A DNA stretch of 54,492 nt from Oscillospiraceae bacterium (GTDB taxonomy: Bacteria; Bacillota; Clostridia; Oscillospirales; WRJC01). Position numbers and translations under genes: made by a program. The notes beneath the pieces were generated by a model. It saw only the letters and a list, made by a program, of their open reading frames with translations. It searched no databases and had not been told where the DNA came from. The stretch is from assembly GCA_009777355.1 (NCBI GenBank), contig WRMA01000003.1:1-54492 (forward strand), given 5' to 3'. Below, piece after piece: positions 6,267 through 44,527 of the stretch (the first letter of the stretch is position 1; the number at the start of each line of letters is the position of its first letter).

Positions 6267-7604
6267 TTATTTTTTTATTTTATTTATAAAATCGGCCAGA
6301 ACGTCGTTCATGTCGGGTTTGCCTATTTCCTGAAGGGCATATTCGACCCGGGTGTTAGGCTTGTTTATTTTTACGATTCTGTTTAAATCTATCGGGGTCG
6401 CTATAACGACGGAATCGCAGTCGGACGCGTTTATCGTTTTCTCGAGGTCGCTGATCTGCTCTTCACCGTAACCCATAGCGGGGAGAAGATTGCCTATATT
6501 CGGGTAAATCCTGTAAGTTTCAGCTAATTTGCCGACGGCGTATTCTCTCGGGTCGACGAGTTCCGACGCTCCGAAGCGTTTTGCCGCGACCGTTCCCGCG
6601 CCGATTTTCATTTCGCCGTGCGTAAGCGTAGGACCGTCTTCGACAACCAGAACTCTTTTGCCGCGTATTATATCGGGATTCTCCACGCTTATAGTAGAAG
6701 CCGCGTCGACGACTGTCGCGCCTTGATTAACTCTCGCGATATTTTCCCTGACTTTTTGTATACCCGCAAAATCCGCGCTGTCAATTTTATTTATAACTAT
6801 AATATCCGCTATGCGCAGAGTGACTTCGCCCGGATAATAAGCGAGCTCGTGACCGGGTCTGTGAGGGTCGACGACAGTAACTGTCAAGTCGGGCTGATAG
6901 AACGGGAAGTCGTTGTTTCCCCCGTCCCATAAAATAACGTCGCAGCCGTCCGGGTCGTTTTCGGCGGCGCGCAGAATCGCTTCATAGTCAACCCCCGCGT
7001 AAATAACGTTTCCTCTCGCGATATGCGGTTCGTATTCTTCCATTTCTTCTATCGTGCATTTATATTTATCCAAATCTTCTATATTCGCGAATCTCTGTAC
7101 TTTCTGTTCTTCGAGGTCGCCGTAAGGCATAGGATGTCTGATTGCGATAACTTTAAGATTATTCGCCATTAAAATTTCGGCTATGCGTCTCGACGTCTGG
7201 CTTTTTCCGCAGCCCGTGCGGGTCGCTCCGACGGCAATCACGGGCTTCGTACTCTTAATCATAGTATTTTTATGCCCCAGCAATTTAAAATCCGCGCCGG
7301 CGGCGTTTACTTTCGCACCAAGCCCCATAACAAAAGCATAAGGCACGTCGCTGTAAGAAAAAACGCACTCGTCTATATTCAAATCTTTTATAAGACGTTC
7401 GAGTTCTTTTTCCTCATATATAGGTATCCCGTCCGGATATAAATCCCCCGCGAGAGAGGCGGGATATTTTCTGCCCGCTATATCGGGGATTTGCGCGGCG
7501 GTAAACGCCTCGACTTTATAAGCGGGATTACCCCTGTAAAAAGTATTGAAGTTGTGGAAATCGCGTCCGGCCGCGCCGATGATAATAATTTTCTGCTGTT
7601 TCAT
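6267..7604 (-). CDS. COG2403 P-loop protein related to cyclic 2,3-diphosphoglycerate synthetase
   Basis: The 445-residue protein has an N-terminal Rossmann-like region (IIIIGAAGRDFHNFN), then a Walker A motif GATRTGCGKSQTS near residue 130, DVILWDGGNNDFPF, and an NKID-like motif (INKIDSADF). This pattern is that of the predicted-GTPase family which includes the archaeal cyclic 2,3-diphosphoglycerate synthetase. The archaeal enzymes make a thermoprotective osmolyte, which makes little sense in a mesophilic Clostridium, so the actual bacterial reaction is unknown to me. It is a single gene with its own promoter, facing alr. Cytosolic, no signal or membrane segment. Confidence 0.75.
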   Translation of the reverse strand: MKQQKIIIIGAAGRDFHNFNTFYRGNPAYKVEAFTAAQIPDIAGRKYPASLAGDLYPDGIPIYEEKELERLIKDLNIDECVFSYSDVPYAFVMGLGAKVNAAGADFKLLGHKNTMIKSTKPVIAVGATRTGCGKSQTSRRIAEILMANNLKVIAIRHPMPYGDLEEQKVQRFANIEDLDKYKCTIEEMEEYEPHIARGNVIYAGVDYEAILRAAENDPDGCDVILWDGGNNDFPFYQPDLTVTVVDPHRPGHELAYYPGEVTLRIADIIVINKIDSADFAGIQKVRENIARVNQGATVVDAASTISVENPDIIRGKRVLVVEDGPTLTHGEMKIGAGTVAAKRFGASELVDPREYAVGKLAETYRIYPNIGNLLPAMGYGEEQISDLEKTINASDCDSVVIATPIDLNRIVKINKPNTRVEYALQEIGKPDMNDVLADFINKIKK

Positions 7605-35814: not shown

Positions 35815-35843
35815 ATTATACAGCAAAATATTTTAATTGTCAA
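35815..35843 (-). promoter_or_regulatory. Promoter of the capA-like gene
   Basis: On the minus strand TTGACA (35843-35838), 17 bases, then TATAAT (35820-35815). This is a full consensus match about 33 bases ahead of the start codon. Confidence 0.75.
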
Positions 35844-35857
35844 CTTAAATTTTTTGC

Positions 35858-35886
35858 TTGACAGATGCGAATAATTATGATATAAT
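35858..35886 (+). promoter_or_regulatory. Promoter of small RNA A
   Basis: TTGACA (35858-35863), 17 bases, TATAAT (35881-35886), divergent from the capA-like promoter. The nearest ORF on this strand starts about 300 bases downstream, after several hairpins. Confidence 0.8.
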
Positions 35887-35892
35887 GGGGGT

Positions 35893-36020
35893 ATAAATAC
35901 AAAGGGAGCGCTCTAACACTCCCGTTTGTACGCGTTGACCGCTTTAAAGGCGGCAGGCCTCGCGCCTGTTTATTTAATAAACGCCGCTAACCTTTGTTAG
36001 TGGGGCGACGTTTGTTCTTT
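35893..36020 (+). ncRNA. Structured small RNA A (type I antitoxin-like?)
   Basis: No ORF follows this consensus promoter. The predicted transcript folds locally into a chain of hairpins: TACAAAGGGAG with CTCCCGTTTGTA (35898-35930), CAGGC/GCCTG, the palindrome GTTTATTTAATAAAC, and CGCCGCTAAC with GTTAGTGGGGCG (35982-36007). The last is followed by TTTGTTCTTTAT and may be a two-way terminator. The chain of hairpins with a GTTAG tetraloop stem recalls antisense antitoxin RNAs of holin-like toxins in Firmicutes. However, I find no hydrophobic toxin ORF on the minus strand opposite. The region 36021-36157, AT-rich, shows nothing further. Confidence 0.5.
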
Positions 36021-36187
36021 ATCGTTCTTATGATGTATTTCGCCGGTTCTATGAAATTTTTTTTATTATTTTTATTATTTGTATAAAAAGTTTCCAAAAA
36101 GTTAAAACGGATTTAATTAAATAGGTTTATTATGGTTTGTGAGTTAAATTATAGAATTTGTTAAAAATAATTCGGAGGTTTAAAATC

Positions 36188-37267
36188 ATGGACGCATATG
36201 AACCGTATAACCGGTATGAAAAATATTACCAGCCCGTTATTATTCTGGACTCTGAATTTAATATCGTATATAAAAACACCGCGGCGAAGCTCTTGAACAT
36301 GAAGCCCCGCGCGGGGGTGAACATAAAGAAATATACCGACTCTGAAAATATGAGAAAAATTAAAGACGCATTTGAAAATAACGACTATAAAATTTTACAG
36401 CTCGGCGAATCTTCGGCGATAAGACGCTGCGTCGCCCAGCCGGACGGTAAGAATTTCACCGCCCTGGTTTTTTACGATTCTTTGAATTTACTGCAGGACG
36501 GGGTCGAAGCGCTCGGAAAAATCGAAGAAATCGTCGTAAAATATAACGAATATAAAAAAAATCTCCCCGAATCGAAAGAGAACGGAGCTCTTTTTTACGA
36601 TAACGGCGGCGGCAGAAAAATGCTCAAAATCAACGAGCATTTCAGACGGCATGTTACAGCTCTTAACCCCCGTCTGCAAAACGCCGGGGATAATCCCGAT
36701 TACAAAAAATACTGCGAAGTCGATTTTTTTTTATCTAAATTTACGTCGAACGTCTCGCGTTATATAAATTCTTTCGGGTACAGAATAGAATTTAACGGAG
36801 ACAGCAAAATGTTTTTTTATAAATTGAACGAAGAAGATTTTCTGATTATCAATTTTATACTGGCCGCGGCGGCGCTGAAATATTCGGTTTTCAATAAAAT
36901 AAATATTGTTTTTATTACTGATTTTCTATCTGAAGCGTCGGGGATATTAAGATACGAGTTTAAGGCGGGCGGCGATTTTTTCAGAGACCGCGGCGATATG
37001 TTCTCCGCCGATTATATAAACGAAATCAAAAATATAGAATACATAGATTTTAACCTCGCCGCCCTCGCCGCGCGTAATAACGGCTTAAAACTGGATATCA
37101 GGTCGGCGGGTCCCGACGGAGACGGCATGGTGTATTTCGACGTGATTTTTCCCGCGAAACCCCTGGGCGTCAAATTTGAGCCAATAGAAGACTGTAACCC
37201 TGAAACGACGGACGAAAAAATATACGAGCTCGCAAAAACAGAGTTTTCCGGGCTGTTCGGGCAGTAA
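36188..37267 (+). CDS. PAS-domain protein with a degenerate histidine-kinase-type ATPase domain
   Basis: The ATG at 36188 has GGAGG nine bases upstream and is preferred over 36158 in the ORF track, giving 359 residues. Residues 15-100 look like a PAS sensor (PVIILDSEFNIVYKNTAAKLLNM). The C-terminal half keeps only the outline of a GHKL ATPase: an INFILAAAALKYSVF helix where the N box should be, and FNLAALAARNNGLKLDIRS near the end. The phospho-accepting H-box, the G1/G2 boxes and membrane spans are absent. It may be a soluble sensor or a scaffold rather than a kinase. It stands alone between small RNA A and gap. Confidence 0.55.
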   Translation: MDAYEPYNRYEKYYQPVIILDSEFNIVYKNTAAKLLNMKPRAGVNIKKYTDSENMRKIKDAFENNDYKILQLGESSAIRRCVAQPDGKNFTALVFYDSLNLLQDGVEALGKIEEIVVKYNEYKKNLPESKENGALFYDNGGGRKMLKINEHFRRHVTALNPRLQNAGDNPDYKKYCEVDFFLSKFTSNVSRYINSFGYRIEFNGDSKMFFYKLNEEDFLIINFILAAAALKYSVFNKINIVFITDFLSEASGILRYEFKAGGDFFRDRGDMFSADYINEIKNIEYIDFNLAALAARNNGLKLDIRSAGPDGDGMVYFDVIFPAKPLGVKFEPIEDCNPETTDEKIYELAKTEFSGLFGQ

Positions 37268-44050: not shown

Positions 44051-44280
44051 GGTTTTTGAACGAGTTAAATTTTTGTGAACAAATAATGGATTTATTCTTT
44101 GCCCTCTTTCGTAAAGAGGGTGCCGTCCGCAGACGGCGGGTGTTTTCGTCTCCCCGTACGCAACATCAAATTTCAAAAACACCCGTCAGCCGCTTACGCG
44201 ACTGCCACCCTCTTTAAAAAAGAGGGCTTTCCGCGATGATTTTCACATTTGTTCATAATTTGTTTACTCGTTCAAAAACC
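44051..44280. repeat. Inverted-repeat element R4b (230 bp)
   Basis: Inverted copy of R4a with the same ends and the same two hairpin blocks. The small differences include TTTCGTAAAG in place of TTTAAAAAAG within one stem. It lies between the rpsB promoter and the promoter of the small RNA B locus, whose -35 box is 22 bases beyond its end. Confidence 0.88.
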
Positions 44281-44302: not shown

Positions 44303-44331
44303 TTGACATAGAGTATAATCTGTGATATTAT
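44303..44331 (+). promoter_or_regulatory. Plus-strand promoter of the small RNA B locus
   Basis: TTGACA (44303-44308), 17 bases, TATTAT (44326-44331). Confidence 0.75.
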
Positions 44332-44337
44332 ATATTT

Positions 44338-44406
44338 ATGTACACGGGGTAAAGTTAAAAGACAGAAAAAAATAGACCCGCCCGCACAAGGTAGTGGTCT
44401 ATTTTT
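44338..44406 (+). ncRNA. Short plus-strand transcript B1 (about 70 nt)
   Basis: Only about 30 bases lie between the predicted start and a strong terminator hairpin. The only ATG is followed by three sense codons and TAA. In type I modules this place holds a toxin ORF of about 30 codons, so this unit looks like a toxin gene whose coding part is lost, or a simple decoy RNA. The transcript is complementary to the end of B2. Confidence 0.4.
44366..44406. terminator. Two-way terminator shared by B1 and B2
   Basis: AAAAAAATAGACC and GGTCTATTTTT pair around CGCCCGCACAAGGTAGT. A runs on the left and T runs on the right give a U tract in either direction. Confidence 0.85.
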
Positions 44407-44492
44407 CGCATTGACTCTTTGAGTTAATCGAGTTTAGCCGTACTGTTCTGTGTACGGAGAGGGGAGTTGTGAACCCCTCTCTAAATTAGTGT
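44366..44492 (-). ncRNA. Small RNA B2, about 125 nt, converging with B1 (antitoxin-like)
   Basis: The transcript starts behind a consensus minus-strand promoter and folds as GAGAGGGG/CCCCTCTC, then CCGTAC/GTACGG, then a stem-loop at TTAACTCAAAGAGTCAA, and ends in the shared terminator. The layout of two converging promoters with a common two-way terminator is that of Fst/TxpA-type toxin and antisense RNA pairs. An 18-codon ORF starting ATGCGAAAAATAG has no ribosome binding site and is probably not translated. Confidence 0.5.
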
Positions 44493-44498
44493 ATCTTC

Positions 44499-44527
44499 AT
44501 TATATCACATCTATTCGCGTCTGTCAA
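44499..44527 (-). promoter_or_regulatory. Minus-strand promoter of small RNA B2
   Basis: On the minus strand TTGACA (44527-44522), 17 bases, TATAAT (44504-44499). It lies only 19 bases ahead of ispE, facing away from it. Confidence 0.85.

What the first reader, a model, noticed from the sequence alone, without database searches (positions are those of the whole stretch)
35858..36020. Multi-hairpin small RNA from a perfect promoter between capA and the PAS gene
TTGACA-17-TATAAT is followed by about 125 bases with four or five local hairpins and no ORF. Two back-to-back consensus promoters share the 14-base spacer with the capA-like gene. Its last stem (CGCCGCTAAC/GTTAGTGGGGCG) can terminate in both directions, as in the 44.4-kb locus. 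I could not find a partner toxin on the opposite strand, only an unremarkable lysine-rich ORF.
Basis: partly seen in the sequence, partly recalled or inferred. Interest (0 to 1): 0.55.

Follow-up and report, generated by a model that had tools for sequence, protein, structure and literature searches.

The report
Orphan antitoxin RNA, toxin lost
The small RNA is one of 13 copies, in a bacterium whose closest named relative comes from a termite gut, of the RNA half of a known kind of toxin-antitoxin pair (BsrG/SR4 type), and in this copy the partner toxin gene has been wrecked, leaving the antitoxin behind.

Summary
The RNA and its consensus promoter are real. [quoted passage not shown] The genome holds 13 copies. 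In ten, the opposite strand carries a convergent ORF of 35-38 aa with its own Shine-Dalgarno (...FL...PDFIEP...IKSKRRP). In three (window, C13, C9) the toxin start region is gone. The "unremarkable lysine-rich ORF" is the toxin's C-terminal remnant (E = 8e-11 against a profile of intact paralogues only). Distant relatives of the same RNA lie opposite Hol_Tox (PF16935) toxins, and two of those loci pass Rfam's BsrG threshold, so the family is BsrG/SR4-TxpA-like. The RNA itself matches no Rfam family at threshold. Its three stems covary strongly: 15 of 26 pairs have changes on both sides, score 0.402 against 0.134 shuffled. The window copy has one broken terminator pair, unique among 20 sequences, an early sign of decay. 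The 44.4-kb locus is a second orphan antitoxin of a related subfamily, its toxin coding region deleted. Most likely the window RNA is a recently orphaned antitoxin without a cis target; residual trans action on a paralogue (28-nt perfect complement to the C79 toxin mRNA) is possible but untested.

The parts
35858..35886 (+). consensus sigma-70 type promoter of the antitoxin RNA (-35 35858-35863, -10 35881-35886)
   Evidence: also present in most paralogues
35892..36022 (+). antitoxin RNA body (start inferred from the -10; end inferred from the terminator)
   Evidence: BLAST paralogues; covariance models R1, R3
35898..35930 (+). stem-loop 1; covarying stem. On the - strand the same hairpin (35923-35904) followed by TTTGTATTT is the vestigial toxin-mRNA terminator
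35939..35968 (+). most conserved core: stem-loop 2 (CCGCTTTAAAGGCGG) and AGGC motif; intact toxin mRNAs carry the same motif, in the same sense, in their 5'UTR
35978..36021 (+). antitoxin terminator hairpin (arms 35978-35988 and 36004-36014, one C.A mismatch unique to this copy) and T-rich tail
35987..36055 (-). remnant of toxin gene: FIEPAKYIIRTIKNKRRPTNKG and stop; membrane segment, start codon, Shine-Dalgarno and promoter lost
35815..35843 (-). divergent consensus promoter of the capA-like (PGA_cap) gene, not part of the module
44350..44527 (-). second orphan antitoxin of a related subfamily: promoter 44527-44499, terminator about 44408-44367
   Evidence: against L061 and L045
44303..44377 (+). 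remnant of the toxin gene of the 44.4-kb locus: promoter TTGACA-17-TATTAT and leader start GTACACGGGG kept, coding region deleted down to the last codons
   Evidence: against the intact locus L061

Best explanation
The RNA is the antitoxin of a chromosomal type I toxin-antitoxin module of the BsrG/SR4 (TxpA/BsrG, Hol_Tox) kind. In intact copies a small membrane-peptide mRNA and the antitoxin RNA are transcribed towards each other from sigma-70 type promoters. The toxin transcript is inferred to run through the antitoxin gene to the antitoxin's first hairpin, so the whole ~130-nt RNA is antisense to the toxin mRNA's 3' part. Pairing is expected to start at the terminator loop and to silence the toxin by RNase III-dependent decay and/or by closing its ribosome-binding site (known for SR4/bsrG, inferred here). 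In the window copy the toxin lost its promoter, Shine-Dalgarno, start and membrane segment, so the RNA is an orphan: probably still transcribed, without a cis target, and beginning to decay. Shown here: family membership of the RNA, the paralogues, covariation, convergent toxin ORFs, toxin loss. Inferred: transcription, RNA ends, silencing mechanism, present uselessness.
For: 13 copies in the genome. Ten have a convergent ORF of 35-38 aa with GGAGTGAAG(C/T)TCATG, under purifying constraint (pooled pN/pS 0.43 outside the overlap). The window remnant matches a profile of intact paralogues only, E = 8e-11. The same RNA in other genomes and viral contigs lies opposite Hol_Tox toxins: L022 1e-11, L050 1e-11, L046 5e-10. 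Rfam BsrG passes its gathering score on the toxin strand of L050 (87.4 bits) and L046 (56.7), and is sub-threshold but full length on L022 (3e-5) and the paralogue C79 (4e-4). Covariation: 15 of 26 pairs with changes on both sides, score 0.402 against 0.134 shuffled and at most 0.123 slid. Toxin 5'UTRs pair best with the 3' region of their own subfamily (9 x 9 permutation, 0 of 20,000), which parallels the 5'-3' pairing in Rfam's BsrG structure. Unique C.A mismatch in the window terminator stem.
Against: The toxin family of this genome is not recognised by Pfam and carries an unusual conserved PDFIEP in the middle. The Rfam BsrG matches on its own loci are below the gathering score. There are no expression data and toxicity is untested. 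A6 was fitted to the model structure, so its pair counts lean that way. The orphan branch (0.088) is no longer than branches of some intact copies, so the decay claim rests on little.
Confidence: 0.88

Rival explanations
1. The orphan antitoxin is kept by selection as a trans-acting buffer: it pairs with mRNAs of paralogous toxins (best candidate C79) and damps leaks, a type I anti-addiction RNA.
For: 28-nt perfect complement to the C79 toxin mRNA across stem-loop 2; duplex energies to paralogues -125 to -160 against -71 for shuffled RNA. Three orphans in this genome, the 44.4-kb locus, and L031, L051, L052 elsewhere keep promoters while the toxin is broken.
Against: Any non-cognate member pairs about as well (-140 to -170), so the orphan is not tuned to a target. 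Terminator loops, the expected recognition site, differ strongly between paralogues (mean identity 0.53, stem 0.95). In C. difficile mostly only cognate antitoxins work (PMC6563280). The window terminator stem is damaged. Toxin loss must precede antitoxin loss, so orphans are expected in passing without selection.
Confidence: 0.2
2. The transcript is a cis-regulatory leader of the downstream gene (PAS-like per the reader).
For: Same strand; terminator-like hairpin about 170 nt upstream of the start codon at 36189.
Against: The same RNA lies beside unrelated genes in 12 other places. Relatives of the downstream gene in two genomes of the same genus have no such RNA upstream. No Rfam riboswitch.
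Confidence: 0.04
3. The copies are a non-coding repeat (MITE-like) that happens to contain a promoter and hairpins.
For: Dispersed multicopy DNA.
Against: Conservation follows two convergent genes with codon constraint, compensatory stem changes and Hol_Tox toxins in relatives.
Confidence: 0.03

Closest known systems
BsrG/SR4 (Bacillus subtilis SPbeta), Rfam RF01412 for the toxin mRNA; Pfam PF16935 Hol_Tox
   Same: Convergent genes; antitoxin antisense to the 3' part of the toxin mRNA; toxin mRNA ends on the antitoxin's first hairpin; 5'-3' pairing in the toxin mRNA; multi-stem antitoxin of about 130-180 nt. Relatives with the same antitoxin RNA pass the Rfam BsrG and Pfam Hol_Tox thresholds.
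   Different: In this genome the toxin has a PDFIEP core not recognised by Pfam; copies lie in chromosomal spacers between housekeeping-type genes rather than in a recognisable prophage; the window copy has no working toxin.
TxpA/RatA (B. subtilis skin element)
   Same: Same toxin superfamily and 3' overlap.
   Different: Overlap about 75 nt in the literature (PMC4147584) against an inferred ~130 nt here.
Fst/RNAII (par of pAD1)
   Same: Convergent small RNAs sharing a terminator region.
   Different: par uses direct repeats that make the two RNAs complementary; here the motif shared by the two RNAs is in the same sense.
C. difficile type I modules (CD2517.1-RCd8 and others)
   Same: Many chromosomal copies of convergent small-toxin/antisense-RNA pairs in a clostridial genome.
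   Different: No toxin sequence similarity reported to other families (PMC6563280); those lie mostly in prophages or next to CRISPR arrays.

Membership tests
Type I toxin-antitoxin | small hydrophobic peptide with ribosome-binding site convergent to the RNA | tested here: met
   met in 10 of 13 paralogues and in L022, L046, L049, L050; NOT met at the window locus itself, where only the C-terminal remnant is left
Type I toxin-antitoxin | non-coding RNA with its own promoter, antisense to the toxin mRNA | tested here: met
   antisense by position; duplex energies
Type I toxin-antitoxin | peptide toxic; RNA silences it | not testable with these tools
   needs expression experiments
BsrG/SR4 (Rfam RF01412) | covariance-model match above gathering score on the toxin strand | tested here: inconclusive
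   met for relatives L050 and L046; paralogues of this genome below the gathering score (C79 31.7 bits, E = 4e-4); no match at the window, where the toxin gene is broken
Hol_Tox (PF16935) | toxin matches the profile | tested here: not met
   no match for the toxins of this genome; met for L022, L046, L050, and L049 just below the cut-off, which share the same antitoxin RNA
Conserved structured RNA | compensatory changes in stems | tested here: met
   with shuffle and slide controls
OrzO-P antitoxin (RF02083) | gathering score 60 | tested here: not met
   21.3 bits, E = 0.42, wrong strand
6S RNA or any other Rfam family | match at gathering score | tested here: not met
Fst/par | direct repeats giving complementary 5' regions in the two RNAs | tested here: not met
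   the shared motif is in the same sense in both RNAs

The most novel reading that the evidence does not exclude
Type I antitoxin RNAs that have lost their toxin are kept as trans-acting guards against the many paralogous toxins of the same genome, an RNA counterpart of protein anti-addiction modules.
Probability: 0.15. Interest if true: 0.6.

Novelty: new member of a known kind. Interest (0 to 1): 0.4.

Why it matters
It gives a covariation-supported antitoxin RNA family that Rfam lacks, tied to BsrG/Hol_Tox toxins. It shows a dispersed 13-copy expansion in one clostridial genome and catches several copies after toxin loss, which makes the question of what happens to an antitoxin RNA once its toxin is gone directly testable.

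Tried and rejected
Rfam on the window at gathering score (none) and at E up to 10 (only chance-level matches; OrzO-P on the wrong strand). Pfam and NCBIfam on this genome's toxins: nothing. R2, built from a free MAFFT alignment that put the outgroups' terminator arms one column out, predicted a poor structure and was not used. Leader of the downstream gene: rejected. Annotated phages, blastn at low identity: no match. The order-wide search found R3 hits in only 6 of 394 genomes with coarse filters, so absence elsewhere is weakly tested; L056 did not look like a toxin-antitoxin locus, while L057-L059 look like further type I loci.

Full report
What was checked. The promoter TTGACA-17-TATAAT at 35858-35886 is exact; four such sites occur in the window against 0.02 expected. 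The capA-like gene (Pfam PGA_cap) has its own perfect promoter 14 bases away on the other strand. The RNA folds better than all 200 shuffles (z = -3.1).

What it is. A BLAST of the RNA against its own genome finds 12 copies at 71-100% identity, and a covariance model adds a thirteenth, C9. Reading the opposite strand of each copy shows a convergent small ORF in ten of them, preceded by GGAGTGAAG(C/T)TCATG, for example MTVYEILFLIIFFLPDFIEPAKYIIMMINSKRRLPPKD. Sigma-70-like promoter sequence for it is visible wherever the contig reaches far enough. The toxin's last codons lie in the antitoxin's terminator hairpin. Codons 2-29 evolve with pooled pN/pS 0.43, so these are genes.

The window copy. 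On the minus strand only FIEPAKYIIRTIKNKRRPTNKG remains (35990-36055). A profile built from the ten intact paralogues alone finds it at E = 8e-11 among 2,563 six-frame stretches. The start codon, Shine-Dalgarno, promoter and hydrophobic segment are missing: maximal 15-residue hydropathy is -0.3 against 2.1-2.2 in intact toxins. C13 and C9 are also orphans, with different break points, so toxin loss happened more than once. C13's toxin end abuts a GGATTTATTCTTTGCCCTCTTT inverted repeat that also lies beside the 44.4-kb locus.

Family. The core pattern CCGCTTWAAAGGCGGYAGGYYT finds three viral contigs and five named metagenome-assembled genomes. Opposite strands in several of them carry MSTYEALSLMIAFGMLVVVIVTDKTKK, MTVFEALTLMIQSGILLIVLITYIRKNTKK, MSIYETLMIMFLFGSFILSILTYISKKK and MSMYEVINTVFTSMMFVIALITVVIHLVKLFSKRK; L051 and L052 are orphans. 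Pfam Hol_Tox matches the first three at 5e-10 to 1e-11 and the fourth just below its cut-off. Rfam's BsrG model passes its gathering score on the toxin strand of L050 and L046. It is sub-threshold but full length on L022 and on this genome's C79; its last hairpin is the reverse strand of the antitoxin's first hairpin. The toxins of this genome are not recognised by Pfam. The membership claim for this genome's copies therefore rests on the shared antitoxin RNA, the architecture and the relatives, not on a toxin profile.

Structure. On 20 homologues 95.7% of cells pair and 15 of 26 pairs have changes on both sides. The covariation score is 0.402 against 0.134 in shuffles and at most 0.123 when the partners are slid. 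The alignment was fitted to the model, which leans the counts upward, but the slid and shuffled controls are far below.

Mechanism. For bsrG/SR4 the literature describes binding that starts at the antitoxin's terminator loop, RNase III cleavage, and a longer helix over the ribosome-binding site (PMC6562991). Here the terminator loops vary strongly between paralogues (mean identity 0.53) while the stems do not (0.95). That fits a specificity loop, though it also encodes the toxin's unconstrained tail. Each toxin 5'UTR repeats its own subfamily's antitoxin core motif in the same sense, so it can pair with the toxin mRNA's 3' region. Across nine subfamily representatives no permutation of 20,000 reached the own-subfamily total. 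I infer a closed toxin mRNA in which antitoxin and 5'UTR compete for the same 3' region; this is not shown.

Function of the orphan. It could pair with the C79 toxin mRNA over 28 perfect bases, but intact non-cognate antitoxins pair about as well, and cross-action is rare in C. difficile (PMC6563280). I favour a recently orphaned RNA without a present role.

Host. The same-genus genome G001 has a contig of the same length (775,362 bases) and the same locus as WRHM01000001.1, an Oscillospiraceae bacterium metagenome-assembled genome, isolate Nt197P3bin116. I take its isolate naming to be that of a termite-gut study (own knowledge), so the window's genome is probably a termite-gut bacterium of that group.

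Noticed in passing
window 44303-44527: Second orphan type I antitoxin of a related subfamily (intact relative: L061, contig C23, toxin MVDLFIDVVSIIVALISIIVTLMNNKKK). The toxin promoter and leader start are kept and the coding region is deleted.
   Followed up: partly
L013:12480-12719: One intact module's antitoxin has no promoter of its own and begins about 12-20 bases after a tRNA-Tyr gene, as if transcribed by read-through and released by tRNA processing.
   Followed up: partly
L034:1501-1800 (G001): Convergent small hydrophobic ORF MNKNLFKILLYIALVLLLMYLFRIEAN opposite a structured RNA that matches the model weakly; no Pfam family.
   Followed up: no
L058:1501-1628 (G239): Another convergent module, MEYITLEDILLIGTFLLAFAKFIIYVSNKKR, whose toxin leader and antitoxin share a different motif (GGTCGCTTCC).
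   Followed up: partly
window 44090-44235; L009 about 6520-6560: Inverted repeat beginning GGATTTATTCTTTGCCCTCTTT next to two orphan antitoxins; possibly a mobile repeat involved in the toxin truncations.
   Followed up: no
   Followed up: no
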